A stretch of 64,000 nucleotides of DNA, from contig JAFUFJ010000021.1 in assembly GCA_017469955.1 (NCBI GenBank), positions 1 to 64,000 of the forward strand. Reading direction: 5' to 3'. This DNA comes from Prevotella sp. GTDB lineage: Bacteria > Bacteroidota > Bacteroidia > Bacteroidales > Bacteroidaceae. How positions within the stretch are numbered: position 1 is the first letter of the stretch; every line of letters begins with the position of its first letter. The notes beneath the pieces are model-generated. The model did not search any database. It was given only the letters and a program-made list of their open reading frames with translations, and was not told the DNA's origin. Below are positions 3,648 to 63,294 of the stretch, piece after piece. Both the position numbers and the translations under genes were made by a program.

Positions 3648-3862
3648 GTTTTTAACACTTCGCGACGTGAAAAGCAAGCAACATCTGGCGAAAAAACAGC
3701 TCTTCAACCCGAGATTTCTGCCCATTTGCGACAACGACGGCACCTCATCTCAGCGAGAAAACTATGCTTTCTTGCCTGCAAACACAAGGATGCTGCACTT
3801 GAAGTCTATGTGTTCACGGCGAGAACCCATAGCTTTCTGCCTGAGAAACGGCAGGTTTCTCG
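3648..3862 (+). repeat. 22-bp palindromic-unit array with leader motif (9 units)
   Basis: The motif GTTTTTAACACTTCG (3648-3662) is followed after 2 bp by nine consecutive 22-bp units starting at 3665. Units starting at 3753, 3797, 3819 and 3841 fit the consensus best (AGAA or TGAA at positions 4-7, TAT/ATAG in the middle, TTCT-like end); the others are degenerate. The length and junction are identical to the array at 32660-32874. Confidence 0.75.
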
Positions 3863-4040
3863 GAAGCAAAGCATTGGAAACAATGGCTAAAAAGCTGCGA
3901 ATATCACTTCCAACTATTATAAGTCAATGAAAAACAGAAAGTTATTACTCAACTAATCATAGGCCTCCATTTCCGCCTCCAATCAGCATTTACAGGCAGA
4001 AGGAGCAGAAGATAGAAACCCTTTGTCCGTCTTTTTCCGA

Positions 4041-4055
4041 GTTTTTAACACTTCG
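4041..4055 (+). repeat. Extra copy of the array leader motif
   Basis: An exact copy of GTTTTTAACACTTCG. The DNA after it shows no clear 22-bp units, so it may be a decayed element. Confidence 0.5.
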
Positions 4056-4125
4056 GATGCCTACGAAACCGACCTTCCGACCGCCTGCTTCCTCACACGC
4101 CAAAGGGCGATGGCGGCGCCGGTTG

Positions 4126-4165
4126 AGAAAAAACAAGGACGCCTACGGGTTGTAGGCATCCTTGT
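4126..4165 (-). terminator. Terminator of ffh-folD-TPR
   Basis: Fourteen-bp arms (4133-4146 and 4152-4165) with one G-U pair and a 5-nt loop, followed on the minus strand by six T residues. The upstream arm is formed by the last codons and stop of the TPR gene, so the coding end and the terminator overlap. Confidence 0.85.
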
Positions 4166-4322
4166 TATAGTAGTTCATAATGTCGTCTATCATCTGCTTG
4201 GCATGCACAGCCGGCGAATCAGGGTCAAGGCTGATGGCCTCAAGATAGGCATTTGCGGCGGCCTGATAGTTGCCTTGCCGGCGATAGTCGTTGCCCAACT
4301 GGTAGTATTCTTCTGCCGTCAT
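4143..4322 (-). CDS. Small single-TPR protein
   Basis: A 59-residue protein that is almost exactly one and a half tetratricopeptide repeats ([32 protein letters not shown], then a short helix and an Asn-rich end). TPRs mediate protein contacts; the partner is unknown. The ATG at 4322 is chosen because it overlaps the folD stop as ATGA, which indicates coupled translation, while upstream starts would lie inside folD. A Bacteroidales trait is such a mini-TPR directly after folD, but I cannot name its function. Confidence 0.72.
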
Positions 4323-5185
4323 CGCCTGCCTGCCTGCAAAGTGTTCAACATCAGCGAGCAGATAGTCATCGGACCTACGCCTCCTGGCACGGGAGTAATG
4401 TAAGAACACAAGGGCGCAACCTCGTCGAACTTGACGTCACCATTGAGCCGATATCCGCTCTTACGGGTAGCATCTGCGACGCGTGTTGTGCCCACATCAA
4501 TGACTACAGCACCAGGTTTCACCATGTCAGCCGTCACGAAGTCGGGCCTTCCTATGGCTGCAATAAGGATGTCAGCCTGCCGACACTCCTCTTGAAGGTT
4601 CTGGGAATGTGAGTGACAAACGGTCACGGTAGCGTCGCCATACTGCTTCTGCATCATCAGCTGGGCCATCGGCTTGCCGACGATGTTTGACCGTCCAAGC
4701 ACGACACACTTCTTGCCGGAAGTCTGAATGCCATAGTGTCTGAGCAGGGTGAGGATGCCTAATGGCGTAGCAGAGATAAAACACGGCAGCCCGATGGCCA
4801 TCCTTCCGACATTGACGGGATGGAATCCGTCGACATCTTTCTTAGGATCGATGGCCTCAGTGACCTTCTGTTCGTCGATGTGTCGGGGCAAAGGCAGCTG
4901 AACAATGAAACCGTCGACATCGGCATCGGCATTCAACTTGGCCACGCAGCCCAAGAGTTCTTCCTCGGTCACATCGTCTTCGAAGCGGATAAGAGTTGAC
5001 TTGAACCCGCACTCTTCGCAGGCCAGCACCTTGTTTCTCACGTAAGTCTCTGAACCTCCGTCATGACCTACGAGCACGGCTGCTAAGTGAGGACGCTTGC
5101 CTCCCTGAGCAACTATCTGCTGAACCTCTGCTGCTATCTGGGTCTTGATGGCCGAAGCTGTGGCCTTTCCGTCAATGAGTTGCAT
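4319..5185 (-). CDS. folD: Bifunctional methylenetetrahydrofolate dehydrogenase/cyclohydrolase
   Basis: Interconverts 5,10-methylene-, 5,10-methenyl- and 10-formyl-tetrahydrofolate using NADP(H), in the cytoplasm. At 288 residues it has the usual length. Catalytic features are visible: the YVRNK segment near residue 50 with the essential Lys, the IVQLPLPRH block with the conserved Gln, DVDGFHP with the Asp, the nucleotide site [14 protein letters not shown], and the terminal [10 protein letters not shown] signature. It lies 54 bp after ffh and is coupled to a small TPR gene, so the three probably form one transcript. Confidence 0.97.
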
Positions 5186-5239
5186 CGTATGAGATGGGTA
5201 TTTGAAGTGATATTTTTGCGAATGGCTGCTTAAAAGGGC

Positions 5240-6580
5240 TTAATGGGGCATCTTAGACATGGGGGGCATCCCCTTCATCATGCCCCGCATTCCCATGCCA
5301 GAGACCATCTTCATCATCTTGCGGGTCTGGTCGAACTGCTTCAAAAGGCGGTTAACCTCCTGAATAGAGGTGCCCGATCCCTTGGCAATGCGCAGCCTTC
5401 GGCTCTGGTTCAGGATGTCTGGATTCTGGCGTTCCTTCGGAGTCATGCTCTGGATGATGGCCTCGATGCTCTTGAAGGCATCGTCGTCGATGTCAAGATC
5501 CTTGATCTGCTTGCCCACACCTGGTATCATCGAGGCGAGTTCCTTGAGGTTTCCCATCTTTTTGATCTGCTGTATCTGGCCGAGAAAGTCGTCGAAGTCG
5601 AACTTGTTTTTGGCTATTTTCTTCTGCAAGCGGCGGGCTTCCTCTTCGTCAAACTGGGCTTGTGCGCGCTCGACAAGTGAGACAACGTCGCCCATACCAA
5701 GTATGCGATCGGCCATACGCGAGGGGTGGAACACGTCGATGGCTTCCATTTTTTCGCCCGTACCGATAAACTTGATGGGCTTTGTGACAACAGTTCTGAT
5801 CGAGAGGGCTGCACCTCCACGGGTATCACCGTCGAGCTTTGTGAGCACAACTCCGTCGAAGTCAAGGCGGTCATTGAACTCTTTGGCCGTGTTGACGGCG
5901 TCCTGTCCGGTCATCGAGTCGACCACGAACAGGGTTTCATCGGGACGTATGGCCTCCTTAAGGGTGGCTATCTCGGTCATCATCTCTTCGTCAACTGCCA
6001 GACGACCGGCGGTGTCGATGATGACGATGTTATAGTTTTCTTGCTTAGCCTTGCGGATGGCATTGGTGGCGATCTCGACCACATTCTTGTTGTCGGGCTC
6101 AGAATAGACGTCGACTCCGACCTGCTCTCCTACCACGTGAAGCTGCTGAATAGCTGCAGGACGGTAAACATCGCAGGCCACAAGCAACGGTCGTTTGTGC
6201 TGCTTTGTCTTCAGCATGTTGGCCAGTTTGCCCGAGAACGTGGTCTTACCAGAGCCTTGCAGACCCGACATAAGGATAATGGCGGGGCGGTTTTCCAGCT
6301 TCAATTCGGCAGCCGTTCCTCCCATAAGTTCGGCTAATTCGTCATGAACAAGCTTCACCATCAGCTGTCCAGGCTTGACTGCTGTGAGCACATTCATGCC
6401 CATAGCCTTCTGCTTTACGGTGTCGGTAAACGTCTTTGCAACCTTGTAATTGACGTCGGCGTCGAGCAGAGCACGGCGTACATCCTTCAAAGTCTCAGCC
6501 ACATTAATCTCGGTTATCTTCCCCTCGCCCTTCAGAATCTTGAACGAGCGTTCCAGTCTCTCACTTAGATTCTCAAACAT
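5240..6580 (-). CDS. ffh: Signal recognition particle GTPase Ffh
   Basis: SRP54 protein that binds 4.5S RNA and signal sequences of nascent chains and delivers ribosomes to FtsY at the membrane. Domains in order: four-helix N domain (1-95), GTPase G domain with GLQGSGKTTFSGKLA (P loop), DTAGRL and TKLDGDTRGG, then the methionine-rich M domain from about residue 320, ending in a run of Met/Gly/Lys. Length 446 is normal. The RNA partner is not in the window. A -7 box lies about 65 bp upstream. Confidence 0.98.
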   Translation of the reverse strand: MFENLSERLERSFKILKGEGKITEINVAETLKDVRRALLDADVNYKVAKTFTDTVKQKAMGMNVLTAVKPGQLMVKLVHDELAELMGGTAAELKLENRPAIILMSGLQGSGKTTFSGKLANMLKTKQHKRPLLVACDVYRPAAIQQLHVVGEQVGVDVYSEPDNKNVVEIATNAIRKAKQENYNIVIIDTAGRLAVDEEMMTEIATLKEAIRPDETLFVVDSMTGQDAVNTAKEFNDRLDFDGVVLTKLDGDTRGGAALSIRTVVTKPIKFIGTGEKMEAIDVFHPSRMADRILGMGDVVSLVERAQAQFDEEEARRLQKKIAKNKFDFDDFLGQIQQIKKMGNLKELASMIPGVGKQIKDLDIDDDAFKSIEAIIQSMTPKERQNPDILNQSRRLRIAKGSGTSIQEVNRLLKQFDQTRKMMKMVSGMGMRGMMKGMPPMSKMPH

Positions 6581-6644
6581 AGTCTGTTGTCTTATTTCCT
6601 TTTTGATTGTTCTCTTTACACAATGGCCTTGCCATATTAATTGG

Positions 6645-6652
6645 CAAAATTA
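6645..6652 (-). promoter_or_regulatory. Putative -7 box upstream of ffh
   Basis: Minus-strand TAATTTTG, a full match to the Bacteroidetes -7 consensus TAnnTTTG, placed 65 bp before the ffh ATG. No clear -33 TTTG at the right distance. Confidence 0.4.
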
Positions 6653-6728
6653 CACAAAAACCCAGTGACTAAGCCCCCTCGTGCAGAGTATTTATAGAAT
6701 TTTAACCATACCGCCGGCGTCATTCTCA

Positions 6729-6860
6729 TGAAGAACTCTGCCCCGGGCTGGCGAGAAAGCTTAGGTTTTAGCCCGAGAACTCATAGGATTCTCGCCCAGA
6801 ACCCTATCCTTTCTCACCCAGAAACCATAGACTTCTCGGGCTAAAACCTAAGCTTTCTCG
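6729..6860. repeat. 22-bp unit array with perfect 27-bp inverted repeat (6 units)
   Basis: Six units in register (6729, 6751, 6773, 6795, 6817, 6839), each exactly 22 bp and each with AGAA or its variant at positions 4-7 and a TTCT-like end. The outer units form perfect 27-bp arms (6753-6779 and 6833-6859) separated by 53 bp, so the whole array can fold as one long hairpin. It is the best conserved copy of the family in the window. Confidence 0.85.
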
Positions 6861-6918
6861 ACGGGAAGTCCTCCCGTTCAATGGCTGTACTGACAGCATA
6901 CTTTCGGCGAATGCAAAC

Positions 6919-6958
6919 GACAGAGGCGCGGACTCTTCGGAAAGTCCGCGCCTCTGTC
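6919..6958 (-). terminator. Strong hairpin after the Gfo/Idh operon
   Basis: Perfect 16-bp arms (6919-6934 and 6943-6958), very GC-rich, around a loop containing TTCG. It begins 17 bp past the stop of the last operon gene. The T run after it on the minus strand is short (GTTTGC), so it may end transcription weakly or protect the 3' end. Confidence 0.7.
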
Positions 6959-6975
6959 GCATGTATTTCAAATAC

Positions 6976-8295
6976 TTAAAGTTCTCTTACCTGGCCCGTC
7001 AGCCTGCTTTGTTCGGCTTCGAAACAAAGGCGATGGCTCTGAAGGGCTTCGTCGATGGACGACGACAGATGGTCAGTACGCCCGCTGACGGCCTTCAAAA
7101 AGTCGTCAAGCAGCAGGAAGTCGGCCCCTCCATGATAGGGTGCTGCCATCGACTCGGTGAAGTCAAACACTTCTTCGGTGCCTTTTCGGAAATGCTTCAC
7201 CACGACTTTTGACTCATCGCAATAGACTTCGCCTTCGGTCAGGCAGATGGTTGTCGAGCGGAAGTCGTCGCGAGTAAAGGCAGTCATGTCGATTGAAATG
7301 GTGGTCTGGTCGGCCAGTTCAATGATGCATGTCTGATGGTCGACGACGTCATTGCTGCAATGGTAGACACACCGGCCAAAGCTTCCTTCGTTCAACTCGT
7401 CCTGCAACACCTCGTCAAGGCTCTTCCCCGCAGGCACGTCGAAGTTGCTAATCCACTCGCGACGGCGCCAATAGAGGTCGACAGCCGAATAGGGACACGT
7501 CGGCTCTACTTTGCAGTCTACACAACGACGGGCAGACCCTTCGGGGGCATTCTCGGCCCGGAACCACTTGAGCGAGCCGAAAGAACTGACACGACGGGCA
7601 GGCGACTGGACCACCCACAGCAGGAAATCGATGTCGTGGCAGCACTTTGAAAGGAACATTGGGTTGGCCTTCCGGCTGTCACTGAACACCCCTCTCACGT
7701 AGCTATGTGCCTGACGGTCGATGCCTACACGCTCGGTATGGCGGACAGAGACCACCTTTCCCAGCTTTCCGGAGGCCACAACTTCCCTTACTTTGCGAAA
7801 ACACGGCATGTAACGAAGCACATGGCAAACGCCGATATAGACACCATGCTCACGGGCTTCACTGGCTAATTGCTCACACTCCTCATAGCGTTGAGCAACA
7901 GGTTTCTCCAACAACACATGCATACCACGCCGGATAGCCATGAGCGTAGGCTGGAAATGATGGTCTTCGGGAGTGGCAATAATGGCAACAGAAGCCCTCA
8001 GCGCGTCGTTCAACGGAAAGACGCCAGCGACTCCTTCGGCTGCTTTCCCCTGCACTGAGGAAAGGTTGTCCACAGCCTTAAAGTATTCTTCATAGTCAGA
8101 AAAACGGGCTTCGGCTGGCAGACCAAACTGATCGGCCATGTCGTTACGCCTCACTTCATCAGGTTCAATGACGGCAACAAGCCGCGCTTCATTCGAGTGC
8201 TCACGCACGTATTTCATATATGTACGCATGCGATTGCCGGCTCCGATGGCAACCATCCGAACCGGCAAACACGCTACATTGTTATTCAAATCCAT
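6976..8295 (-). CDS. Gfo/Idh/MocA-family oxidoreductase (cytoplasmic)
   Basis: A 439-residue NAD(P)-dependent dehydrogenase of the glucose-fructose oxidoreductase class. It shows a Rossmann start (VRMVAIGAGNRMRTYM), the EKP motif in LLEKPVAQRYEEC (about residue 135), and the conserved HD in CCHDIDFLLW at about residue 220. A Cys-rich insert (CVDCKVEPTCPY) follows, possibly a metal site. It lacks a signal peptide, unlike the first gene of the operon, and follows the HEAT/DUF1080 gene by 9 bp. From work on Bacteroidetes 3-keto-glycoside pathways I infer that it oxidises or reduces a sugar C3 position. Confidence 0.88.
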   Translation of the reverse strand: MDLNNNVACLPVRMVAIGAGNRMRTYMKYVREHSNEARLVAVIEPDEVRRNDMADQFGLPAEARFSDYEEYFKAVDNLSSVQGKAAEGVAGVFPLNDALRASVAIIATPEDHHFQPTLMAIRRGMHVLLEKPVAQRYEECEQLASEAREHGVYIGVCHVLRYMPCFRKVREVVASGKLGKVVSVRHTERVGIDRQAHSYVRGVFSDSRKANPMFLSKCCHDIDFLLWVVQSPARRVSSFGSLKWFRAENAPEGSARRCVDCKVEPTCPYSAVDLYWRRREWISNFDVPAGKSLDEVLQDELNEGSFGRCVYHCSNDVVDHQTCIIELADQTTISIDMTAFTRDDFRSTTICLTEGEVYCDESKVVVKHFRKGTEEVFDFTESMAAPYHGGADFLLLDDFLKAVSGRTDHLSSSIDEALQSHRLCFEAEQSRLTGQVREL

Positions 8296-8304
8296 TGAAT
8301 TGGC

Positions 8305-11163
8305 TTACTTCTTCGACTTCTTTGCTGCCTTCTTTGCGACAGGTTTCTGCTTACTCAGGTCAAGAATGCGGATGTTACGGAAGCGTACACCTTCGCCATG
8401 ACCGCAGAAACTGATGTAACCGTCCTTGTTGAAGAGACCCGGATGGCTCTGGTGGTCTACGGTATATGGGTTTTCCTTGGCACCCTCGGGAGCCATGTTG
8501 TGCCCCTGACAAGCCTCACGAATGTTACCGTCAAGAATCACTTCTCCATTCACCGTCACGGTGATATGGTCGCCTTCAGCACGGATTTCCTCTGTATTCC
8601 ATGTGCCTAAAGGCGGGAATACGACACGCTTCGACGGAATAATACCATATACAGATCCATGCTGTTGATACTCTCTAAGCCATCCTGCATAGATAGAAGC
8701 GTCATGATCCAGCACCTGAATTTCCATGCCATCATAGGCAGCATCCACACCATCCTTCGTACGAATGCCTATGCCGTTGTTGACGCCGGGCTCCAAAAAT
8801 GCAAATTCAAAACGATAGACAAAGTCGCTATATTTCTTGTTTGTATAGAGGTTTCCATTGTCACCATAGCCTGCACTGACGTAGATCGTACCGTTGTCGG
8901 ACACGTAGTTGGTCTTGTTGCCATGCCATTTGTCAAGAGTCTTGCCGTCAAACAGGAGTTCAAAGCCTTGGTCTTTCTCCTCTTTTGACAACTCTACATT
9001 CATGGCTTTGTTGCTTTCCTGCACCTTAGCCAGCAGACCTGCGATCTCGTCTATTGCATATCCTGCATCAGCATCGCCCTTAGCCTTCTCGGAACGGAAG
9101 ATGTCTTGAGCCTTGAGAAGCATCTCTTTAGTGTCTTCACCGAACTGCAATGGCTTGTTTTTGGCCACAAGTGTCTTCACGGTTTTGGCAGCTTCAACGG
9201 CTGTTTCCTTGTTGCCAAGATACTGAGATGCCAACTGCAACGACGGAACAGTGCCCACTGACGAGAGGGCATTGATAAAGTTATTGGTGAGTTCTGTCGA
9301 TGGATGAAGGTCAAGAGCCTGACTGATCAGCCTGTATTCGCGGGCATTTCCATAGTTGTAGTCATCGACCAGCTGATAATAACGGCCAAGAATCTGGTTC
9401 TTTTGAGCCGGTCGCTGTTTGGCAATTTCATAAAGGTTGTCGATGACAGAGGAGTTCTGGACGGTCAGCAACGATGCCAATGCTGCATCAGAAGTGGCAG
9501 GCTTTGCATACTCTTCCATAAGCGTGCTGATGGCCTCTTTTGTGCCAACTTGGGCAATGAGCGGATAATAAAGAGCCTTATTCTTTGTCTCTTTCAGCCT
9601 TGGAGTAACGAGTGCCAGTTGTTCTTCGGCCGTTTTCCCTTGGATGGCAGCAAGAGTTGCAGCCTGTACTTTTGCGACTTCGTTGCCAGAAGCCTTCTCC
9701 AACAAGTCGCAAAGCTGACCGAAATTCTCGGCACGGGCTACCCCTGCCAAGGCATTATAAGCAGCCTTCTTCACGTCAGCATTCGGACTTTTCAGCAAAG
9801 AAACTACCTGAGGATAGGCTGCAGCGACATGGCGATCGGCAACAAGACCGAGGGCTTGGGCCTGGATTGTTGGATTTTCAGCGGCTAAAGTAGCGACTAA
9901 ACCGCTGCCAATCTCACCATTATAGGTCAACAATGCTGCCGAAGCTGCCTCTGCTTTGTCGGTTCCAAGTAGTGACAATAATGAGCTAAGAGCCTTTTCT
10001 CCGCCAATTTTCGAAGTGGCAACGATCGATGATTCTGCGAGGGTTTTGTCTGCGGAATTGATCTGACTGATGACGTTTCCGACCTGAGAAGCTACGTGAT
10101 TATTGCCTAACCAGCGTGCTACGTCTACCTTTGCAGCAGGAGAAAGTTTCGAGAGTTGGTTGCCAACTGTGTCAAAAATGCCATTTCCGGCAACCTCTTC
10201 AGCAAGCAGCAAGGCTGTGTTTCGATATTCGATATCATTGTCTTTCAATGCATTCTGCACCAGTTTCCCGGCCTTTCCTCCTGCAGTTTGCAAGGCAAGT
10301 TTCAAACCTGCACAACGAATTGCGCTCTTATTGTCCTTCATTAACTCTTTGGCTGCTTTCTGAACAGCTTTTGAATCGGTTGCTGAAAGGCGGTTGAGCA
10401 GCTGCAGATAGCTGTCGGTAGCTCCCGTTGCATCATCATTATATGCAGCAGCCTTGGCTGCAGTTGCCAGCACTGACAACGACTTTGACGAGCCAACAGC
10501 CGACAAAGCGTTGAACACCTCGGCCTTGGTCTTTGCATCTGCGCCATTGATCCAGCCCGTCAATGCATCTTCCACACCTGCCAGTTTTTTCTGATAGGCC
10601 AGGTATGCGAGGTCGGCTTTTGAGCCTTTTCCTTCATTGATCAGCTGACGAATGACGTCTTCCGAACCGTTCATCGATGCCAATGCTGTGCGTGCAAAGC
10701 CACTTTGATAAGGATCGTTGAGGTATTTTGCAAACATCTGTGCATCAGATTTCTGTGCAATTTTCGGCAGAATGCTCAGCAAGAAAGCCTTGTTCACTTT
10801 GTCTTGCTGTGATTCTATGCCACGAAGCAATGCCTTGCGCACGGGTTCTCTCAGCGACTTGTTTGCCTCTTGCGACACATAGTTCACAACACCGTTGATG
10901 GCATATTCATAGGTTGCGTTCTTTCCTTCGGCCGAAGGTCCCAGTTTTGAGATGAGCATGTCCATGCCTTTCTCGCCGGTATTGGCCAGCTCGCCCATCA
11001 CTTCTTCATATTGAGCCGTTGTCTTTGCCGGCAGTTGAGCCAGTCCGTCGGCTACGATTGTTTCCAGTACACGGCCACGGGCATCGCGCTGCTGGGCAAA
11101 TGTAGTGGTGCTGATGCATGTCATTGCAGCCACTAACACGACATTATATATCAATTTTCTCAT
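8305..11163 (-). CDS. Secreted HEAT-repeat protein with C-terminal DUF1080 (3-keto-glycoside cleaving) domain
   Basis: A 952-residue protein with a signal peptide (cleavage after TTFAQ, about residue 24). Residues 30-720 are a long run of alpha-helical HEAT-like repeats rich in Ala, Leu and Lys. Residues 735-935 are a DUF1080 / 3-keto-disaccharide hydrolase-type jelly roll (FELLFDGKTLDKWHG, DGMEIQVLDHD, QHGSVYGIIP), with a Lys-rich tail. DUF1080 proteins in gut Bacteroidetes act as lyases or hydrolases on 3-keto-glycosides made by partner Gfo/Idh enzymes, which are encoded on either side here. The HEAT part may be a scaffold. Exact substrate unknown. Confidence 0.85.
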   Translation of the reverse strand: MRKLIYNVVLVAAMTCISTTTFAQQRDARGRVLETIVADGLAQLPAKTTAQYEEVMGELANTGEKGMDMLISKLGPSAEGKNATYEYAINGVVNYVSQEANKSLREPVRKALLRGIESQQDKVNKAFLLSILPKIAQKSDAQMFAKYLNDPYQSGFARTALASMNGSEDVIRQLINEGKGSKADLAYLAYQKKLAGVEDALTGWINGADAKTKAEVFNALSAVGSSKSLSVLATAAKAAAYNDDATGATDSYLQLLNRLSATDSKAVQKAAKELMKDNKSAIRCAGLKLALQTAGGKAGKLVQNALKDNDIEYRNTALLLAEEVAGNGIFDTVGNQLSKLSPAAKVDVARWLGNNHVASQVGNVISQINSADKTLAESSIVATSKIGGEKALSSLLSLLGTDKAEAASAALLTYNGEIGSGLVATLAAENPTIQAQALGLVADRHVAAAYPQVVSLLKSPNADVKKAAYNALAGVARAENFGQLCDLLEKASGNEVAKVQAATLAAIQGKTAEEQLALVTPRLKETKNKALYYPLIAQVGTKEAISTLMEEYAKPATSDAALASLLTVQNSSVIDNLYEIAKQRPAQKNQILGRYYQLVDDYNYGNAREYRLISQALDLHPSTELTNNFINALSSVGTVPSLQLASQYLGNKETAVEAAKTVKTLVAKNKPLQFGEDTKEMLLKAQDIFRSEKAKGDADAGYAIDEIAGLLAKVQESNKAMNVELSKEEKDQGFELLFDGKTLDKWHGNKTNYVSDNGTIYVSAGYGDNGNLYTNKKYSDFVYRFEFAFLEPGVNNGIGIRTKDGVDAAYDGMEIQVLDHDASIYAGWLREYQQHGSVYGIIPSKRVVFPPLGTWNTEEIRAEGDHITVTVNGEVILDGNIREACQGHNMAPEGAKENPYTVDHQSHPGLFNKDGYISFCGHGEGVRFRNIRILDLSKQKPVAKKAAKKSKK

Positions 11164-11204
11164 TGCGAATGTTTTTTAGTCCTTGATTTTCTGATTACCT
11201 TTTC

Positions 11205-12491: not shown

Positions 12492-12569
12492 GATACTCTC
12501 GTATTGTATTTAAGTTGTTTTGATTCAGGCCTTGAAGTGTAAACCGAAAGGAAACACAACATCTGGCTA

Positions 12570-12577
12570 CAAAGTTA
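12570..12577 (-). promoter_or_regulatory. Putative -7 box of the Gfo/DUF1080 operon
   Basis: Minus-strand TAACTTTG, a perfect TAnnTTTG match, about 79 bp before the ATG at 12491. Confidence 0.5.
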
Positions 12578-12881
12578 CTGTTTTTTTCTTAAACAGCGAC
12601 TATTCTTTGTCTTTTTTTTGCTTTTTCTTCGGAAACAGCACATCTTCCTGCAGTAAAGACCGACGACAGACGTGCAAATTTCAGATAAAACAAGCACAAC
12701 CGGACGGAAAATGAATACTTCATCGACATGAAGAGCAGGCATTCTCATCCCTTTCCCGACGGGACATGGCAAGACGAAAACGGAGGTAAGCGGAGCTGGA
12801 ATGTAAAAGTTTTATGCCTAAAAAACATGCATGATTTTTAAGTGTTCCAGTGAAAGAAAACGGCAAGGAAGAGACTTTACA

Positions 12882-13179: not shown

Positions 13180-13198
13180 CCTCTTGTCAACTTTTTTC

Positions 13199-54521: not shown

Positions 54522-54546
54522 CACCCATCCTAAAAACCACGACAAC

Positions 54547-55452: not shown

Positions 55453-55470
55453 AACAACCCTTCCGAGGCT

Positions 55471-56247: not shown

Positions 56248-56258
56248 AACAAGATAAA

Positions 56259-57551
56259 ATGAAAAAACTACAGACATTAGCAGCCACAATGATTCTTGTA
56301 TTCTCTACCCCGGCATGGGCACAATACGAAAATACAGAAATCACTGTGACCGACGAACAAGGCAAACAAGAAATCATCGACCTGCCAGAAGGCATGACAC
56401 AAGACGTGGACAGTCTGCTGTCCTTATTCCACACTCAAGCATACTTGCAACCCGACGAAGGCTGCAATCTGCCCGACGTCAATCCCGTATACGACAAAGA
56501 CACCTATGTACAGCGCCTCGGAAGCCTGCCGACCGTAATGGAGATGGCCTACAACAATGCCGTAATGGCCTGCATCGACCGCTACACAAACAGGCTCAGA
56601 CGCTCGGTAAGCATCATGCTCGGTGCAGCAAACTTCTACATGCCCATATTCGAACAGGCATTGGAATCCTACGGCATCCCGCTCGAATTAAAGTATCTGC
56701 CAGTCATAGAGTCGGCATTAAACCCCAATGCCGTGTCGCGTGTCGGGGCTACAGGTCTGTGGCAATTCATGCTGGCAACAGGCAAACAATATGGACTTGA
56801 GGTCAATTCCCTCTACGATGAACGCCGCGATCCCGTAAAATCCTCCTATGCCGCGGCACACTATCTAAGCGACCTCTATAAGATATTCGGCGATTGGAAC
56901 CTCGTAATCGCAGCCTATAACTGCGGACCTGAGAACGTAAGCAAGGCCATGCACCGGGCAGGAGGCAGCAAAGACTACTGGCAGATATACCCCTATCTCC
57001 CACGGGAAACAAGAGGATACGTCCCAGCTTTCATTGCAGCCAACTATGTGATGAACTACTATTGCGAACACAACATCTGCCCAATGATAACTACACTTCC
57101 TACGAAAACCGACACGGTGATGGTGAATCGTGATGTACACTTCGAACAGATAGCACAGGTTTTGGGCGTAGACATCAACCAGATAAAGGAACTCAATCCA
57201 CAATATCGGCGCAACATCATCAACGGAAGTACTCGCCCGATGGACCTGAGATTGCCCGCAAACATCATCAATAACTTTATCGATCAAGAAGAAGCCATTT
57301 ACGCATATAATGCAGAAGAACTGCTCACCAAGCGCACAGAAGTAGACGTAAATGAAGCACAAATGGCAGCTCTGAAACGACCATCAAAGTCAAGTCGTTC
57401 TGCGAAAGGAGCCTCAAGAGTGACAGTTCGCAAAGGAGACACGCTGGGAGCCATCGCAAAACGCAACCATACCACCGTGGCAAAACTGCGCAGTCTGAAC
57501 CGAATCAAAGGCAATACCATCAAGGCAGGACAAAAGATAAGAGTCAAATAA
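56259..57551 (+). CDS. mltD: Membrane-bound lytic murein transglycosylase D-like, with LysM
   Basis: A 430-residue peptidoglycan-cleaving enzyme with signal peptide (LQTLAATMILVFSTPAWAQ). The lytic transglycosylase domain has the catalytic Glu in PVIESALNPNAVSRVGATGLWQFM (about residue 155) and AYNCGPENVSKAM. One LysM repeat closes the protein (VTVRKGDTLGAIAKRNHTTVAKLRSLNRIKGNTIKAGQKIRV); a weaker LysM-like stretch precedes it. The ATG at 56259 starts the signal; upstream residues belong to another frame of the preceding gene. Confidence 0.95.
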   Translation: MKKLQTLAATMILVFSTPAWAQYENTEITVTDEQGKQEIIDLPEGMTQDVDSLLSLFHTQAYLQPDEGCNLPDVNPVYDKDTYVQRLGSLPTVMEMAYNNAVMACIDRYTNRLRRSVSIMLGAANFYMPIFEQALESYGIPLELKYLPVIESALNPNAVSRVGATGLWQFMLATGKQYGLEVNSLYDERRDPVKSSYAAAHYLSDLYKIFGDWNLVIAAYNCGPENVSKAMHRAGGSKDYWQIYPYLPRETRGYVPAFIAANYVMNYYCEHNICPMITTLPTKTDTVMVNRDVHFEQIAQVLGVDINQIKELNPQYRRNIINGSTRPMDLRLPANIINNFIDQEEAIYAYNAEELLTKRTEVDVNEAQMAALKRPSKSSRSAKGASRVTVRKGDTLGAIAKRNHTTVAKLRSLNRIKGNTIKAGQKIRVK

Positions 57552-57603
57552 AATCGTCAACGAAACTGTCGGCAGCCAAGCATAAACCCCTAAAACCATC
57601 TCT

Positions 57604-59877
57604 ATGGACGAACCTAACATCAACGAGACTGAGCGAGAACTGGCCGAAGAACAAATGATCAATGAAGCTTTCCTAAGACTTCAGAAATCATATCTTTCTT
57701 CACCTCACCGAAAAAAAATAGACATCATCACAAAAGCCTTCAACTTTGCCAAGCAGGCTCATAAGGGTGTCAGAAGACTTTCAGGCGAACCTTACATCAT
57801 GCACCCCATTGCCGTGGCGCTCATAGCAAGCGAAGAAATGGGACTTGGATCAACGAGTATCTGCTCAGCACTGCTGCATGATGTCGTAGAGGATACTGAC
57901 TATACGGTAGAAGACATTGCAAACATCTTCGGACCTAAAATCGCTCAAATCGTAGATGGGTTGACAAAAATATCAGGAGGAATATTTGGCGACCAGGCTT
58001 CTGCACAGGCAGAAAACTTTAAAAAGTTATTGCTTACAATGAGTGATGACATCAGAGTCATCCTTATTAAGATTTGTGACAGGCTGCATAACATGCGTAC
58101 TTTAGAGTCGCAACCTGCCAATAAACAATATAAAATAGCAGGAGAGACCCTCTATATATATGCGCCTTTAGCCAATAGACTGGGGCTAAACAAGATCAAA
58201 AGTGAACTGGAGAACCTCAGTTTCAAGTTCGAACATCCGGAGGAATATCAGGCAATCACCAACAAACTTTCCTTCACCAAGGAACAGCGAGACCGTCTTT
58301 TTGAACAATTTACGGAACCAATCCACGAGGCTCTCGACAAGATGGGTATCAAATATGAAATCAAAGCAAGGGTAAAAACACCTTATTCCATCTGGACAAA
58401 GATGAGGAATAAGAATGTCACCTTCGAGGAAATATATGATATTCTTGCCGTCAGAATCATTTTTACGCCTAAGAAACGTGAGGAGGAGATCAATGAATGC
58501 TTCAACATTTACGTGGCTTTAAGCAAGATCTACACCAGCCATCCCGACCGGATGAGGGAGTGGCTTAACCATCCTAAGGCCAATGGATACCAAGCTTTGC
58601 ATGTAACTTTGATGTCAAGACAGGGTCGATGGATAGAAGTACAGATACGTTCCGACCGCATGCATGAGGTTGCAGAACAGGGGTTTGCCGCCCATTGGCA
58701 ATATAAAGACGGAGCTGAGATTGGCGAAGACGAAGGAGAACTCAACGACTGGCTGAAGACTATCAAGGAAATTCTCGATGATCCGCAGCCCGATGCGATG
58801 GACTTTCTCGATGCCATAAAGCTCAATCTTTTTGCATCTGAGATATTTGTATTCACTCCAAAGGGCGAAATCAAGACCATGCCGGCAGGCTGTACTGCGC
58901 TTGATTTTGCCTTTTCCATCCACACTTTCCTCGGTTCTCACTGCATTGGGGCCAAGGTCAATCACAAACTTGTGCCACTCAGCCACAAGTTACAGAGTGG
59001 AGATCAGGTAGAGATTCTTACTTCAAAAGCCCAGCATGTCCAGCCATCCTGGATTACATTCGTAAGCACAGCCAAGGCCAAGTCAAAGATTCAGTCTATG
59101 CTTCGGCGAGAAGACCGTGAGACACAACGCAAGGGAGAGAAGATTCTTAACGACTGGCTTCAGCAAAATGAGCTGGAACTTACGACTGGAGTTCTTGATT
59201 CTCTTTGCGAGTTTCACGACCTGCAAAAGCACGACAGCCTTTTTCTCGCATTGGGAAAAAAAGCCATTCTGCTAAGCGAAAAGGATATCGATGCCATACG
59301 AAAAAAAGGAAAGAAGAAAGGGAATTCATCTTCGACAAGCTGGAGAAAATACGTTCCTTTCCTGCATGACAAACCAAAAAGCGAGAATACCGAAGACAAG
59401 CTATACGTTGTTGACAGCGATTTCAACAAAAAGAAGCCTGTCGTCATCACCGAACAGACCATCGAATCCTACATCTTCAAGAACTGTTGTCACCCCATTC
59501 CAGGTGATGACGCCTTGGGATTCATTAACAACAAGCAGCGAATTGAGATCCATAAACGCACTTGCCCCATTGCCACTAAGCTGAAATCAAGTTTCGGAAA
59601 CCGCATTCTTGACGCCAAATGGGACATGCACAAAGAGCTTTTCTTCGACGCTACCATCCAGATTCAGGGTATTGACCGCAAGGGAATGATTCATGATGTG
59701 GCAGAAGTCATCTCTGGAGAACTTGACGTCAACATTCACCGCGTCACCATATCGAGCGATAAAGGCATCTTCGACGGCAGCATAGAGTTGCGGGTTCACG
59801 ATCGCGACGAGGTAAGAGTCGTCATGGAAAACCTGAAAAAAATTGACGGTTTGCAAGACATTCAACAAATATTATAA
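57604..59877 (+). CDS. Bifunctional (p)ppGpp synthetase/hydrolase, RelA/SpoT family
   Basis: A 757-residue stringent-response enzyme. Domains in order: HD hydrolase with HPIAVALI, ALLHDVVEDTDYT (intact HD) and CDRLHNMRTL; synthetase with KTPYSIWTKM, DILAVRIIF and HPKANGYQALHVTL; TGS (EIFVFTPKGEIKTMPAGCTALDFAFSIH); then a C-terminal region with CCHPIPGDDALGFI and an ACT domain (residues 680-757). Both catalytic halves look intact, so it should make and degrade ppGpp. Placed between mltD and the tricorn-like protease gene, which follows after 2 bp. Confidence 0.96.
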   Translation: MDEPNINETERELAEEQMINEAFLRLQKSYLSSPHRKKIDIITKAFNFAKQAHKGVRRLSGEPYIMHPIAVALIASEEMGLGSTSICSALLHDVVEDTDYTVEDIANIFGPKIAQIVDGLTKISGGIFGDQASAQAENFKKLLLTMSDDIRVILIKICDRLHNMRTLESQPANKQYKIAGETLYIYAPLANRLGLNKIKSELENLSFKFEHPEEYQAITNKLSFTKEQRDRLFEQFTEPIHEALDKMGIKYEIKARVKTPYSIWTKMRNKNVTFEEIYDILAVRIIFTPKKREEEINECFNIYVALSKIYTSHPDRMREWLNHPKANGYQALHVTLMSRQGRWIEVQIRSDRMHEVAEQGFAAHWQYKDGAEIGEDEGELNDWLKTIKEILDDPQPDAMDFLDAIKLNLFASEIFVFTPKGEIKTMPAGCTALDFAFSIHTFLGSHCIGAKVNHKLVPLSHKLQSGDQVEILTSKAQHVQPSWITFVSTAKAKSKIQSMLRREDRETQRKGEKILNDWLQQNELELTTGVLDSLCEFHDLQKHDSLFLALGKKAILLSEKDIDAIRKKGKKKGNSSSTSWRKYVPFLHDKPKSENTEDKLYVVDSDFNKKKPVVITEQTIESYIFKNCCHPIPGDDALGFINNKQRIEIHKRTCPIATKLKSSFGNRILDAKWDMHKELFFDATIQIQGIDRKGMIHDVAEVISGELDVNIHRVTISSDKGIFDGSIELRVHDRDEVRVVMENLKKIDGLQDIQQIL

Positions 59878-59879
59878 TT

Positions 59880-62800
59880 ATGTTCAGAAAGATTTTCACC
59901 TGTTTTCTCATGGCCTTTGCCATGACATCACAGGCACAAGAAGCACCATTGTGGCTTCGCCATTGCGCTATTTCGCCAGACGGAAAGACCATTGTGTTCT
60001 CCTATAAGGGTGACCTTTTCACCGTTTCTTCAATGGGAGGAGAGGCACAGCAGCTCACAACCAATGCAGCCTACGAAGCCTATCCCGTCTGGAGCCCTGA
60101 CGGATCGCAGATAGCATTCGCATCAAGTCGCGAAGGAAGTCTCGACATATATATTATTAATAAGGTGGGGGGCGAGCCAAGAAGGCTGACAACAACCAGC
60201 GGAAACGAAATTCCTCTGACGTTCAAGGACGCCCATACCGTGCTGTTTCAGACATACATCATGCCGACGGCCCAGTCGATCATCTTCCCAAGTGCACAGT
60301 TTCCTCAGGTATACGAAGTGGCAACAGAGGGAGGCAGTCCGCGCCTTTATTCGGCATTAACCATGGAAGGCTTGCAGCTGAATGCCCAAGGCGACGCCCT
60401 TTACTACGACAAGAAAGGTTATGAAGACGAGTTTCGCAAGCACCATAAGTCGCCTATTGCCCGCGACATTTGGCTCGTCAGCAATGGCAGACACACCAAG
60501 TTGACCACCTTCCCAGGTGAAGATCGCAACCCCATATGGGCTTCTGACGGGCAGTCTTTCTACTATCTCAGCGAGCAAGACGGCACCGGCAATGTCTATC
60601 ACCGCATGCTTAGCGGTGCTGAGAAACAGCTTTCAAGTCTGAAAAACCATCCCGTCCGCTATCTCTCTGCTGCCAAAAATGGCACTCTTTGCTTCAGCTA
60701 TGACGGCGAGATCTATACCCTTAGAGAGGGAGAACAGCCCAAGAAGGTCCTGATCAGCATCACGACCGACCGACAGGACAAAGACCTTATCCGCCAAGTT
60801 CGCACGTCGGGAGCCAGCGAGATTGCCATCTCTCGCGACGGCAAGGAGGTGGCCTTTGTGCTGCGTGGCGACGTATTCGTCACGTCAACCGAATACCGTA
60901 CCACCAAGCAAATCACCGATACTCCCGAACAAGAGCGTTCCATCTCGTTTGCACCCGATGGCCGTTCTATCGCCTATGCTGCCGAACGTGACGGACATTG
61001 GCAGATCTATCAGGCCAAGCTGACAAAGCCTGAAGAGAAGCGTTTCACCTATGCCACGGCCATAGAGGAGGAAAGACTGACGCAGACCGACGTCACTTCG
61101 TTCCAGCCACAATACAGTCCTGACGGCAAATTGCTGGCCTTCATCGAAGACCGCGGTGCGCTTTGTGTGATGGATCTGCAGACAAAGTCGGTGCGCCGAG
61201 TGATGGAGAAAGACTTCAACTTCTCCTATAGTGACGGAGACGAGTGGTTTGAATGGAGCCCGGACTCACGCTGGCTGCTGTCGAGTTACATCGGTCACGG
61301 GGGATGGAACAGCCAAGACGTGGCACTTGTTAATGTTGCTAACGGAGAGATTCACAACCTCACCCAGAGTGGATACAGCGAAGGCTCGGCACGATGGGCA
61401 CTTGGAGGCAAGGCGATGATTTTCGAAAGCGACCGTGCCGGCTACCGAAGCCATGGCAGCTGGGGTGCCGAAAGCGACATCTATATCATGTTCTTCGACC
61501 TTGATGCCTATGAACGCTTCCGCATGACCAAGGAAGAACGCGCCCTGATGGACGAGGCCCAAAAGGAAGCCAAGAAAGACAACACCTCGGCCGATGCTTC
61601 AAAAGACGGCGACAAGAAGCCGAAAGACAGCGACAAGAAAGGCAAGAAGAAGGGGAAAGACAGTGGAAAAGCCGACGAGAAGAAGGTTCCCGAACTGGTA
61701 TTCGACCTTGAAAACTGCCGTGACCGCGTGGCCCGTCTGACCGTCAACTCTTCTCGTTTAGGCGATGCCATACTGTCTCCGGGGGGCGATACCCTCTACT
61801 ATCAGTCGGCCTTTGAGGGCGGTCTCGACCTTTGGAAGCACGACCTCAAGGAGAACAAGACCGAGCGGGTGATGCGCGGAGTGGCCGGACGCATGGTGGC
61901 CGACAAAGACTTCAAGCAGATTTTCCTGTGCTCCGGTGGCGGCATCAAGAAGATTGACCTTGGCAAGAACGACCAGAAGAGCATCGACTTCGAAACCGTG
62001 TTCAACTATCAGCCTTACAAGGAACGTGCATATATCTTCGATCACATCTGGCAACAGGTGAAAGACAAGTTCTACGTCGAAGACCTTCATGGCACAGACT
62101 GGGACATGTACCGCGAGGCTTACCGCCGTTTTCTGCCCCATATCAGCAATGAATACGACTTCAGAGAGATGCTCAGTGAGATGCTTGGAGAGCTCAATGG
62201 CTCGCATACTGGAGCCCGATACTACCCCGGAGGTCCCACGCTTTCTTCGGCCTATCTCGGAGCCTTCTTCGACCCATCCTATGAAGGTGACGGCCTGAAG
62301 ATTGAGGAAATCATCAAGCGCGGGCCCTTTGCTGTGAAGAAGACGGGCGTAGAACGGGGCTGCATCATTGAGCAAATCGACGGCATACCCTTGCAGAAAG
62401 GCACCGACCATCAGCCCCTGCTCGACGGCAAGGCTGGCAAACCAGTCAGGCTGACGGTGCTCAACCCGCAGACCAACAAACGCTTCGACGTTGTCATCAA
62501 GGCCATTTCACTCAGTCAACAGAACGACTTGCTCTATCGCCGATGGGTCGATCGCAACCGTCAGTTGGTCGACTCGCTCTCGGGAGGCCGGCTGGCTTAC
62601 GTGCATGTGAAGGCCATGAACAGCGACAGTTACCGCACAGCCTACCGCGAACTGCTCAGCGACGAGAACCGCAACCGCGAGGCAGTCATCGTCGATGAGC
62701 GCCACAACGGCGGAGGATGGCTGCACGACGACCTCTGCACATTGCTCTCTGGTCGCGAATATCAGCGCTTTATCCCGCATGGAAAGTACGTCGGCAGCGA

Positions 62801-63131
62801 CCCTTACAACAAGTGGACCAAGCCCTCATGCGTGCTGATGTGCGAAGACGACTATAGCAATGGCCACGGTTTTCCGTGGGTCTACAAGACCTTGGGCATC
62901 GGCAAACTCATCGGAACTCCTGTGGCTGGCACGATGACAGCCGTATGGTGGGAGACCTTAATCAATGGCATGGTGTTCGGCATTCCTCAGGTTGGCTGCC
63001 AGGGAATGGACGGACGCTTCGGCGAAAACATCCAGCTCGATCCCGACATCGAGGTCTACAACACACCAGAAGACTTCCTCATCGGCCACGACACCCAGCT
63101 CGAACGTGCCGTAAAGGAAATGCTCCGATAG
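59880..63131 (+). CDS. Secreted tricorn-type S41 protease
   Basis: A 1083-residue exported protease with signal peptide (FLMAFAMTSQAQ). Residues 25-640 form beta-propeller repeats (ISPDGKTIVFSYKGDLFTV, WSPDGSQIAFASSREGSLDIYII and similar), interrupted by a highly charged Lys/Asp linker near 565-600. Then follow a helical C1-like region, a PDZ domain (about 800-880) and an S41 catalytic domain with VDERHNGGGWLHDDL and the likely nucleophile Ser993 in EDDYSNGHG. Such tricorn-like proteins degrade peptides, here in the periplasm. Last gene of the parA block. Confidence 0.94.
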   Translation: MFRKIFTCFLMAFAMTSQAQEAPLWLRHCAISPDGKTIVFSYKGDLFTVSSMGGEAQQLTTNAAYEAYPVWSPDGSQIAFASSREGSLDIYIINKVGGEPRRLTTTSGNEIPLTFKDAHTVLFQTYIMPTAQSIIFPSAQFPQVYEVATEGGSPRLYSALTMEGLQLNAQGDALYYDKKGYEDEFRKHHKSPIARDIWLVSNGRHTKLTTFPGEDRNPIWASDGQSFYYLSEQDGTGNVYHRMLSGAEKQLSSLKNHPVRYLSAAKNGTLCFSYDGEIYTLREGEQPKKVLISITTDRQDKDLIRQVRTSGASEIAISRDGKEVAFVLRGDVFVTSTEYRTTKQITDTPEQERSISFAPDGRSIAYAAERDGHWQIYQAKLTKPEEKRFTYATAIEEERLTQTDVTSFQPQYSPDGKLLAFIEDRGALCVMDLQTKSVRRVMEKDFNFSYSDGDEWFEWSPDSRWLLSSYIGHGGWNSQDVALVNVANGEIHNLTQSGYSEGSARWALGGKAMIFESDRAGYRSHGSWGAESDIYIMFFDLDAYERFRMTKEERALMDEAQKEAKKDNTSADASKDGDKKPKDSDKKGKKKGKDSGKADEKKVPELVFDLENCRDRVARLTVNSSRLGDAILSPGGDTLYYQSAFEGGLDLWKHDLKENKTERVMRGVAGRMVADKDFKQIFLCSGGGIKKIDLGKNDQKSIDFETVFNYQPYKERAYIFDHIWQQVKDKFYVEDLHGTDWDMYREAYRRFLPHISNEYDFREMLSEMLGELNGSHTGARYYPGGPTLSSAYLGAFFDPSYEGDGLKIEEIIKRGPFAVKKTGVERGCIIEQIDGIPLQKGTDHQPLLDGKAGKPVRLTVLNPQTNKRFDVVIKAISLSQQNDLLYRRWVDRNRQLVDSLSGGRLAYVHVKAMNSDSYRTAYRELLSDENRNREAVIVDERHNGGGWLHDDLCTLLSGREYQRFIPHGKYVGSDPYNKWTKPSCVLMCEDDYSNGHGFPWVYKTLGIGKLIGTPVAGTMTAVWWETLINGMVFGIPQVGCQGMDGRFGENIQLDPDIEVYNTPEDFLIGHDTQLERAVKEMLR

Positions 63132-63165
63132 CCGCTGCCCTGCCCCTTCAAAAGGGCATCCCTCT

Positions 63166-63294
63166 CGGTTGCTGCCGAGAAAGGTGCCCTTTTAGGGTCA
63201 GAAGTCATAGCTTTATTGCCGAGAAAGGATAGCTTTATCCTTAATAAACCTAAGACTTCTCAGGCTAAAACCTAAGCTTTCTTGCCAGCAACCG
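63166..63294 (+). repeat. 22-bp palindromic-unit array flanked by inverted repeats (5 units)
   Basis: Five exact 22-bp units from 63175 to 63284, flanked by inverted CGGTTGCTG (63166-63174) and CAGCAACCG (63286-63294). The last unit (GGCTAAAACCTAAGCTTTCT) is nearly identical to the last unit of the array at 6751-6860. It lies between the tricorn-type gene and the next gene on the same strand. Confidence 0.85.

What the first reader, a model, noticed from the sequence alone, without database searches (positions are those of the whole stretch)
3648..63294. Dispersed intergenic arrays of degenerate palindromic units with an exact 22-bp period
Eight intergenic sites (3665-3862, 6729-6860, 12882-13035, 30448-30535, 32677-32874, 49612-49721, 53295-53426, 63175-63284) hold 4 to 9 consecutive units of exactly 22 bp. 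The consensus is AGAAnnnnATAGnnTTTCT, each unit a weak palindrome (AGAA...TTCT). Register is kept even across decayed units, for example seven frames at 12882-13035 where the last unit is again near consensus. Twenty-two bp is about two helical turns, so unit centres face the same side of DNA, as in an array of protein-binding sites; the RNA could instead form a row of small hairpins. All sites are between genes or at a gene end. I know of no named family that fits.
Basis: seen in the sequence. Interest (0 to 1): 0.9.

Follow-up and report, generated by a model that had tools for sequence, protein, structure and literature searches.

The report
In-phase repeat arrays on helical lattice
The dispersed 22-base-pair repeat arrays are real, and in this genome they sit in step with a weaker 11-base-pair DNA rhythm that runs for kilobases through the genes around them, so strongly that it steers which synonymous codons this Prevotella uses.

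Summary
All eight arrays hold up (0-1 of 500 shuffles reach each). The canonical form is a 110-bp element of five 22-bp dyads. Its 31 near-invariant bases match 229 (+) and 215 (-) times in the 2.26-Mb genome, mostly one near-palindrome read on both strands; reversed controls 0. The 131 elements studied are all 110 bp, mean identity 73%.

They are nodes of something larger. AA/TT steps recur every 11.02 bp, through coding DNA too, with a phase-correlation half-life near 1.2 kb, against 109-136 bp in E. coli and two cyanobacterial plasmids. In 131 of 131 elements the coding DNA 60-760 bp away is in register. In other Prevotella, 47 of 50 arrays are in register where a lattice is visible and 18 of 30 elsewhere, P. 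veroralis included (2 of 5). Third-codon AT runs from 22% to 59% with helical phase; orthologous DNA of a close relative shows none of this.

No RNA covariation, no gradient around arrays, no reader protein found. Likeliest: uncoded cores of a rotational-register code for nucleoid packing. Main rival: phase-dependent mutation.

The parts
6751..6860 (+). Canonical 110-bp element (five 22-bp dyad units), between the start of the ffh/SRP54 gene (5240-6580, -) and the end of the 6976-8295 (-) gene
   Evidence: lag-22 0/500 shuffles, phase difference to flank lattice 0.1 bp (measured on 6729-6860); Pfam
49612..49721 (+). Canonical 110-bp element (five units), beside a tyrosine-integrase gene (49769-50710, -)
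   Evidence: 0/500, phase difference -1.9 bp; Pfam
63175..63284 (+). Canonical 110-bp element (five units), downstream of a tricorn-like protease gene (59880-63131, +)
   Evidence: 0/500, phase difference -0.2 bp; Pfam
3665..3862 (+). Degenerate 22-bp array, about nine units; preceded by GTTTTTAACACTTCGC, shared with 32677-32874
   Evidence: 0/500, phase difference 0.2 bp
12882..13035 (.). Degenerate 22-bp array, about seven units
   Evidence: 0/500, phase difference -1.0 bp
23455..23530 (.). Further degenerate 22-bp array, not in the finding, at a gene end
   Evidence: TRF 22-bp row 23482-23530; lag-22; 0/500, phase difference 0.0 bp
30448..30535 (.). Degenerate 22-bp array, four units, starting in the last codons of 29664-30461 (+)
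   Evidence: 1/500, phase difference 0.8 bp
32677..32874 (+). Degenerate 22-bp array, about nine units
   Evidence: 0/500, phase difference 0.2 bp
53295..53426 (.). Degenerate 22-bp array, about six units
   Evidence: 0/500, phase difference -0.2 bp
1..64000 (.). 11.02-11.03-bp AA/TT lattice (GC steps in antiphase) through coding and non-coding DNA, with phase slips
   Evidence: coding-only power 131 at P=11.0266; 1-kb-block coding power 9.5, falling to 1.8-2.2 when synonymous codons are shuffled; half-life 1054-1126 bp

Best explanation
Shown: in this genome the arrays are the strongest, non-coding cores of a helically phased DNA lattice (AA/TT every 11.02 bp, GC-rich steps half a turn away) that keeps its register over one to several kilobases and runs through the genes. 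Inferred: selection maintains this lattice because it fixes which face of the DNA bends inward in a long, regular packed state of the nucleoid, either a plectonemic superhelix or DNA bound by an abundant dimeric nucleoid protein with a two-turn (22-bp) footprint. In genes the register is written mainly in synonymous codons. Between genes there is no protein code to obey, so it can saturate into 22-bp dyad repeats. A 22-bp unit, and the 110-bp element as a whole, is a multiple of 11, so gaining or losing units leaves the register of the neighbours intact; this would explain why the period is exactly 22 while the wording differs from species to species. In this species one wording has become fixed at about 230 sites, which suggests sequence-specific binding on top of shape.
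For: Register: 131/131 elements in phase with coding DNA 60-760 bp away, Rayleigh nR2 112.7. All 8 listed window arrays at lattice phase 6.7-9.2 of 11. Other Prevotella with a visible lattice: 32/32 arrays on the stretches I first chose, 2/5 on the three stretches of the same genomes that I had left out, 13/13 on seven named loci with power 3 or more: 47 of 50. Lattice: half-life 1178 bp against 109 in E. coli and 124-136 in two cyanobacterial plasmids. Codons: AT3 0.59 in phase and 0.22 out of phase, phase predicted from DNA 150-1500 bp away, n=95,297; flat in relative G159 and in E. coli. Synonymous shuffling lowers coding power from 9.5 to 1.8-2.2. Direction: at codon position 3, relative-S to own-W 0.58 in phase and 0.21 out; relative-W to own-S 0.155 in and 0.53-0.58 out (unpolarised). 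Period: 45 Prevotella stretches hold 43 lag-22 arrays and at most 13 at any other lag from 13 to 40; nine stretches outside the genus hold none.
Against: Lattice strength does not depend on distance to a canonical element (Spearman -0.004, n=586 blocks), so the arrays do not organise it locally. Where no lattice is clear, arrays are in phase in 18 of 30 cases, near chance; P. veroralis, which has a weak lattice, gives 2 of 5, and both of its arrays with strong signal in array and flank are out of phase. Several Prevotella genomes have 22-bp arrays without a visible lattice. The closest relatives found lack the lattice, so the genus does not need it. Element positions alone show no common register across whole contigs. 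In the polarised subset the loss of out-of-phase A/T is only weakly seen (0.03-0.05 against 0.02). Dyad symmetry is not universal: 8 of 43 arrays have z >= 2. No protein was found. Two lag-22 stretches of the window are not in phase.
Confidence: 0.52

Rival explanations
1. Mutational imprint. A stable bound or supercoiled state presents one face of the helix to damage or repair, so mutation rates differ by helical phase and write the lattice without selection. The arrays are places where this ran furthest or where the bound state is most stable.
For: The pattern is carried by point substitutions between this genome and G159 (AA/TT only in own: n=524, mean cos +0.31; shared: n=416, +0.08) and is strongest at codon position 3. 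In the polarised subset (1748 sites) the gain of A/T in phase is clear (0.18 against 0.06 out of phase) while the reverse change is rare and only weakly phased. Periodic mutation in nucleosomes is reported (PMC8349767, search listing only).
Against: Unpolarised, S-to-W in phase and W-to-S out of phase both occur, in transitions and transversions, with C-G exchanges also raised out of phase; A-to-T shows no clear phase dependence. This is more than one simple chemistry would give. A mutational cause still needs a register stable over evolutionary time. It does not explain the fixed 110-bp wording at about 230 sites.
Confidence: 0.3
2. Sequence-specific operator arrays: a dimeric regulator or nucleoid protein binds the 22-bp dyads, and the lattice in the flanks is unrelated or secondary.
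For: 31 near-invariant columns, fixed 110-bp length, AGAA/TTCT half-sites 11 bp apart, about 230 sites.
Against: 131/131 phase agreement with flanking coding DNA. Arrays with unrelated wording in other species, and within one genome (G026), keep the 22-bp period.
Confidence: 0.1
3. A mobile or MITE/REP-like interspersed repeat.
For: High copy number, intergenic, outer arms inverted (columns 4-11 against 101-108, 95-100% complementary). In relative G388 the array lies inside a longer repeat (mostly 380-450 bp) with conserved flanks.
Against: No near-identical copies among 131 (maximum pairwise identity 0.95, mean 0.73; exact duplicates would have been merged), no length variation, no conserved flanks in this genome beyond phased A/T. 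Insertion at random phase would not give 131/131.
Confidence: 0.05
4. RNA element: each array forms hairpins in a transcript (terminator, stabiliser).
For: Local dyads; weak covariation of the right arm of unit 1 with the left arm of unit 5 (cols 12-100, 15-97, 16-96, 19-93; z about 3-4, 131 elements).
Against: Whole-structure covariation does not exceed shuffles (27 elements); unit 3 is anti-palindromic (cols 54-58 z=-4.4); 28 of 126 elements lie between divergent genes; no Rfam match.
Confidence: 0.03

Closest known systems
~11-bp AT-tract periodicity, 'structural code' of bacterial and cyanobacterial genomes (PMC4132750, passages seen; it cites Tolstorukov 2005 and Cohanim 2006, not seen)
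   Same: AA/TT steps at about 11 bp, mostly in coding DNA, encoded largely at codon position 3
   Different: The passages describe signals of about 100 bp and an autocorrelation read at 30-101 bp. Here the half-life is about 1.2 kb (124-136 bp in two cyanobacterial plasmids), AT3 swings 22-59%, and repeated 22-bp arrays lie in register; the passages seen mention no such arrays.
Chromosomes with 'persistent' periodicity (PMC3431218, PMC3940949, passages seen)
   Same: One dominant period over most of the chromosome
   Different: Persistence there means the same period recurring along the chromosome; phase coherence over kilobases is not described in the passages seen
BrickBuilt MITE of Porphyromonas gingivalis (PMC4596501, passages seen)
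   Same: Intergenic arrays of a short tandem unit in a Bacteroidales genome
   Different: 23-nt direct repeats with leader, tail and terminal inverted repeats, 19 copies; here 22 bp, dyad units, five units, about 230 copies
Plasmid iterons such as those of R6K (recalled, no call)
   Same: 22-bp spacing that puts sites on one face of DNA
   Different: Dispersed over a chromosome; dyad rather than direct wording in this species; replication genes beside them were not looked for

Membership tests
Bacterial ~11-bp AT-tract 'structural code' | AA/TT autocorrelation with a period near 11 bp | tested here: met
   P 11.006-11.034 in all 20 own stretches examined; coding 1-kb block power 10.3 at 11.02 against 1.0-1.4 at the other periods tried
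Bacterial ~11-bp AT-tract 'structural code' | Carried by coding DNA, mainly codon position 3 | tested here: met
   synonymous shuffle 9.5 to 1.8-2.2
Bacterial ~11-bp AT-tract 'structural code' | Signal about 100 bp long | tested here: not met
   half-life 1178 bp; E. coli 109-136, cyanobacterial plasmids 124-136
Bacterial ~11-bp AT-tract 'structural code' | DNA measurably curved or positioned in the nucleoid | not testable with these tools
   needs footprinting or gel mobility
MITE | Terminal inverted repeats | tested here: met
   outer 8 positions 95-100% complementary
MITE | Target-site duplications | not tested
   no empty sites available
MITE | Recent near-identical copies; insertion independent of flanking helical phase | tested here: not met
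   no pair above 0.95 identity; 131/131 in phase
BrickBuilt | 23-nt direct repeat with leader and tail | tested here: not met
   22-bp lag, none at 23; no conserved flanks beyond phased A/T
Structured RNA | Compensatory base changes | tested here: not met
   whole structure, 27 elements: 172-405 of 500 shuffles as high on the five measures; arm-level signal of unit 1 right with unit 5 left only (131 elements)
Nucleoid-protein binding-site array | An identified protein that binds the unit | not testable with these tools
   HU (PF00216) and HU-HIG (PF18291) present in 16/16 genomes, with and without lattice

The most novel reading that the evidence does not exclude
Some Prevotella chromosomes carry a rotational-positioning code like that of nucleosomal DNA, but continuous and at 11.02 bp. 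A regular nucleoprotein or plectonemic fibre holds DNA in one register for kilobases, dictates synonymous codon choice by helical phase, and is read out at dispersed 22-bp-unit arrays that are free to expand only in multiples of the helical repeat.
Probability: 0.38. Interest if true: 0.96.

Novelty: new variant of a known kind. Interest (0 to 1): 0.9.

Why it matters
Whether ~11-bp AT periodicity in bacteria does anything is a long-open question, because the usual signal is weak and fades within about 100 bp. Here it keeps its phase about ten times further, third-codon AT content runs between 22% and 59% with it, it is absent from orthologous DNA of a close relative at 72-82% identity, and it comes with about 230 dispersed in-register arrays that can be deleted, shifted by half a turn or used as bait. 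That makes the question directly testable. It also adds helical phase to the known causes of codon bias and warns that codon-based analyses of such genomes are confounded. The 22-bp period of intergenic arrays across the genus was not found described in my searches.

Tried and rejected
Rfam, tRNAs, one element against plasmids and phages: no match. Whole-array hairpin: rejected on covariation. Idea that arrays vary by loop inversion through template switching: cores and linkers do occur in both orientations, but the mechanism was not tested. Chromosome-wide single register: an early reading from a 64-kb power of 184-196 and from autocorrelation at 16-32 kb was withdrawn. Block-phase randomisation on 11 of 20 own stretches shows coherence beyond 1 kb in 7 (0-8 of 400) and beyond 2 kb clearly in 3 (window 1/400, L127 1/400, L117 0/400), not in L102, L104, L105, L115; for larger blocks of the window 9/400 (4 kb), 26/400 (8 kb), 6/400 (16 kb). 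Element positions alone (56, some converted by hand) show no common register: sum of Rayleigh maxima not at 11.02; C6 alone peaks at 11.0252 (nR2 8.6, n=26), neighbour spacings give nR2 2.9 at 11.025. Arrays as organisers of the lattice: not supported. Conservation of the ffh-upstream site: of 29 other loci inspected, 3 have a lag-22 array, on the upstream side of ffh but 0.5-1.3 kb away rather than about 0.2-0.3 kb as here. HU/HU-HIG copy number as correlate: no difference. The 6976-8295 gene was a poor choice for orthologues. The pattern was mistyped and found nothing; rebuilt it. Universal dyad symmetry: 8 of 43 only. The '22bp AA-TT alternation' column had a faulty variance and is not used.

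Rows dropped before counts: 3 of 134 element hits under 90 bits, and elements identical over 110 bp would have been merged; 5 of 131 elements without a gene on both sides; 6 of 80 named loci shorter than 11 kb; 7 of 52 Prevotella stretches, those placed at ffh, from the lag tally; one own stretch (L116). One search had left out three array-bearing stretches (L172, L173, L177) without reason; one search adds them (2 of 5 in phase) and tests others. For that mend and for the polarised result I lowered the best explanation from 0.55 to 0.52 and the novel case from 0.40 to 0.38, and raised the mutational rival from 0.27 to 0.30.
Full report
OBSERVATION. Each of the eight sites has 22-bp self-similarity that 500 dinucleotide shuffles do not reach (one reaches it at 30448-30535). 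In the window lag 22 (8 stretches) and its double, 44 (7), stand out; every other lag from 10 to 43 gives 0-2. The core AGAANCNATAGNNTTCT occurs 68 times in the assembly (34 on each strand), reversed pattern 0; 12 of 59 relatives have one match each. Aligning the copies shows a fixed element: five 22-bp units, 110 bp, in the window at 6751-6860, 49612-49721 and 63175-63284. In 670 kb held from this genome I found 131 elements above 90 bits, all on one ungapped 110-column model. Mean pairwise identity is 0.73 (0.53-0.95). AA at unit positions 6-7 and TT at 17-18 carry 1.9-2.0 bits in all five units, so AA and TT alternate every 11 bp. A pattern of 31 near-invariant letters (124 of 131 elements without mismatch) matches 229 times forward and 215 in reverse in the 2.26-Mb assembly, control 0. 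The listed places mostly appear on both strands, so there are about 230 elements, one per 10 kb.

SURROUNDINGS. Of 126 elements with a gene on both sides (my own codon-model ORFs), 37 lie >E>, 25 <E<, 36 >E< (one of these inside a gene) and 28 <E>. All orientations occur, with medians of 81-106 bp from stop codons and 188-216 bp from starts. That speaks against a general terminator or promoter role. Whole-element RNA pairing shows no covariation beyond shuffles (27 sequences). In the 131-element set only the right arm of unit 1 and the left arm of unit 5 covary, and unit 3 is the opposite of palindromic.

THE LATTICE. The flanks of the elements carry A and T in the same 11-bp register, fading outwards but still visible ten units away. 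AA/TT steps are phase-locked to the elements to 1.4 kb, the farthest examined, on both sides, inside coding DNA as well, with a drift that gives a period of 11.03 bp. In the window the AA/TT power at 11.0266 bp is 184 overall, 131 with the eight arrays and 220 bp around them masked, and 131 in coding DNA alone, where random DNA gives 1; GC, CC and GG steps are half a turn away. The 20 own stretches examined give 11.006-11.034 bp. 500-bp blocks outside elements exceed power 3 in 85% of 586 cases, where chance gives about 5%. Genes on both strands behave alike.

HOW FAR IT IS COHERENT. The phase correlation falls with a half-life of 1178 bp (own, 19 of the 20 stretches), 922 (G016), 2002 (G192), 1396 (G146), 651 (G006), 373 (G026 with P. 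veroralis) and 109 in 50 kb of E. coli; stretches without lattice were left out for G016, G192 and G146. It is 136 and 124 bp in 50-kb pieces of two cyanobacterial plasmids. A null that randomises the phase of blocks, run on 11 of 20 own stretches, shows coherence beyond 1 kb in the window, L127 and L117 (0/400) and in L109, L103, L108 and L120 (2-8/400), but not clearly in L102, L104, L105 and L115 (26-82/400). Beyond 2 kb it holds for the window (1/400), L127 (1/400) and L117 (0/400), and more weakly for L109 (5/400) and L103 (8/400). Element positions alone show no common register across contigs. So this is a kilobase-scale lattice with slips, not a chromosome-long one.

ARRAYS AND LATTICE. 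For 131 of 131 elements the coding DNA 60-760 bp away is within a quarter turn of the element's register (Rayleigh nR2 112.7). All DNA on the left is in register in 128 of 129 and on the right in 127 of 128; 300-1300 bp away in 120 of 129 and 122 of 128. Left and right flanks of random points also agree (333 of 351 with power above 3 on both sides, of 400 drawn), as expected if elements ride on the lattice. Other Prevotella: on stretches I chose from six genomes with some lattice, 32 of 32 lag-22 arrays are in phase with flanks 60-700 bp away (nR2 23). Three stretches of the same genomes that I had left out give 2 of 5, the three misses all in L173 (G006), two of them with no flank signal; seven named loci with power 3 or more give 13 of 13; so 47 of 50. 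Stretches without clear lattice give 14 of 20, and no-lattice stretches of lattice genomes together with P. veroralis 4 of 10 (P. veroralis 2 of 5, with its two strongest cases out of phase). Lattice strength does not depend on distance to an element, so elements are nodes, not sources.

GENUS-WIDE. Besides this genome, 97 of 397 genomes of the genus have a match to the sequence model at E <= 0.01 (strict filters, at most 9 candidates scored in most genomes), all much weaker than here. Word-free, 45 Prevotella stretches (896 kb) placed away from the listed hits, though many of the genomes came from that hit list, hold 43 lag-22 arrays against at most 13 at any other lag from 13 to 40; nine stretches outside the genus (197 kb, eight other Bacteroidales families and E. 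coli) hold 0. In 74 named loci around ffh the tally is 51 at lag 22, then 30 at 21 and 25 at 14. Dyad symmetry is significant in only 8 of 43. A lattice with 1-kb-block power of 3 or more is seen in 7 of those 74 loci, at 10.92-10.98 bp, one of them Hoylesella enoeca. The three relatives closest by ffh in the 398 genomes searched (93-96% identical protein; G295, G270, G159) lack it in the nine stretches examined. Some lattice genomes have stretches without it (G016 1 of 4, G146 2 of 4, G192 1 of 3).

HOW IT AROSE. In orthologous DNA 72-82% identical, AA/TT modulation is 0.416 +/- 0.043 here and 0.003 +/- 0.052 in G159. AA/TT steps found only here lie in phase (n=524, mean cosine +0.31), those found only in G159 out of phase (n=249, -0.13), shared ones are nearly neutral (n=416, +0.08). 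G295 (3947 sites, part counted twice through overlapping loci) and G270 (2324) agree in direction, with smaller modulation here (0.16 and 0.28). At codon position 3 a G/C in G159 is A/T here in 58% of in-phase and 21% of out-of-phase sites; the reverse change is 15.5% and 53-58%. Most substitution types take part, transversions included; A-to-T does not. In the subset polarised by further relatives (1748 sites) the gain of A/T in phase is clear (0.18 against 0.06), the loss of A/T out of phase only weak (0.03-0.05 against 0.02). Across 95,297 third positions AT content runs from 0.59 to 0.22 with a phase read from DNA 150-1500 bp away; first positions run 0.51-0.39 and second 0.66-0.575; G016, G192 and G146 show the same at position 3 with smaller swing, G159 and E. 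coli are flat. Shuffling codons among synonyms, with protein and codon usage kept, lowers coding power from 9.53 to 1.82-2.21. The lattice therefore looks like a derived state written mainly by synonymous substitution.

MECHANISM. Shown: arrays and genes of this genome share one helical register of 11.02 bp. Inferred: the register matters for how DNA bends in the nucleoid. A period above 10.5 bp is what PMC4132750 associates with plectonemic supercoils (passage seen). The 22-bp unit suggests a two-fold symmetric reader, and expansion by 22 bp keeps the neighbours in register. A mutational imprint of a stable bound state is the main alternative and cannot be separated from selection with one genome per species. 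No candidate protein is distinguished by HU or HU-HIG content (16 of 16 genomes positive for both).

NOVELTY. Periodic AT steps at about 11 bp, mostly at third codon positions, are known. The passages I saw describe signals of about 100 bp (PMC4132750), fit half-lives of 5-60 bp while also saying that local periodic regions in E. coli extend at least a kilobase (PMC7537859), or speak of persistence of the period (PMC3431218, PMC3940949). In those papers, each seen only in passages, and in the listings, I found no report of phase coherence with a half-life of a kilobase, of phase-dependent AT3 of this size, or of in-register 22-bp arrays. The library lacks most subscription papers, so this is not proof of absence.

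Noticed in passing
L162, L164, L165, L166, L167, L168 (genome G388): The 5-unit array lies inside a longer repeat (mostly 380-450 bp, 651 in one pair) with conserved flanks, 81-94% identical between these six loci: a possibly mobile carrier of the array in that species.
   Followed up: partly
window 44232-44396: Two copies of an 88-bp tandem repeat (97% match; 88 = 8 x 11).
   Followed up: no
window 26842-26930 and 42059-42150: Two further lag-22 stretches that are not in phase with the lattice.
   Followed up: partly
window 1-2000, 20000-22000, 46000-50000, 56000-58000: Lattice is weaker here; 49769-50710 is a tyrosine integrase, so some may be recent arrivals.
   Followed up: no
L296 (G016, GC 0.37), L298 (G192, GC 0.36): Low-GC stretches of lattice-positive genomes lack the lattice, as acquired DNA would; AT3 against phase might date horizontal transfer.
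   Followed up: no
window 3648-3664 and 32660-32676; L005: Degenerate long arrays begin with a shared GTTTTTAACA[CT]TTC block that I did not see in the 110-bp elements.
   Followed up: no
   Followed up: partly
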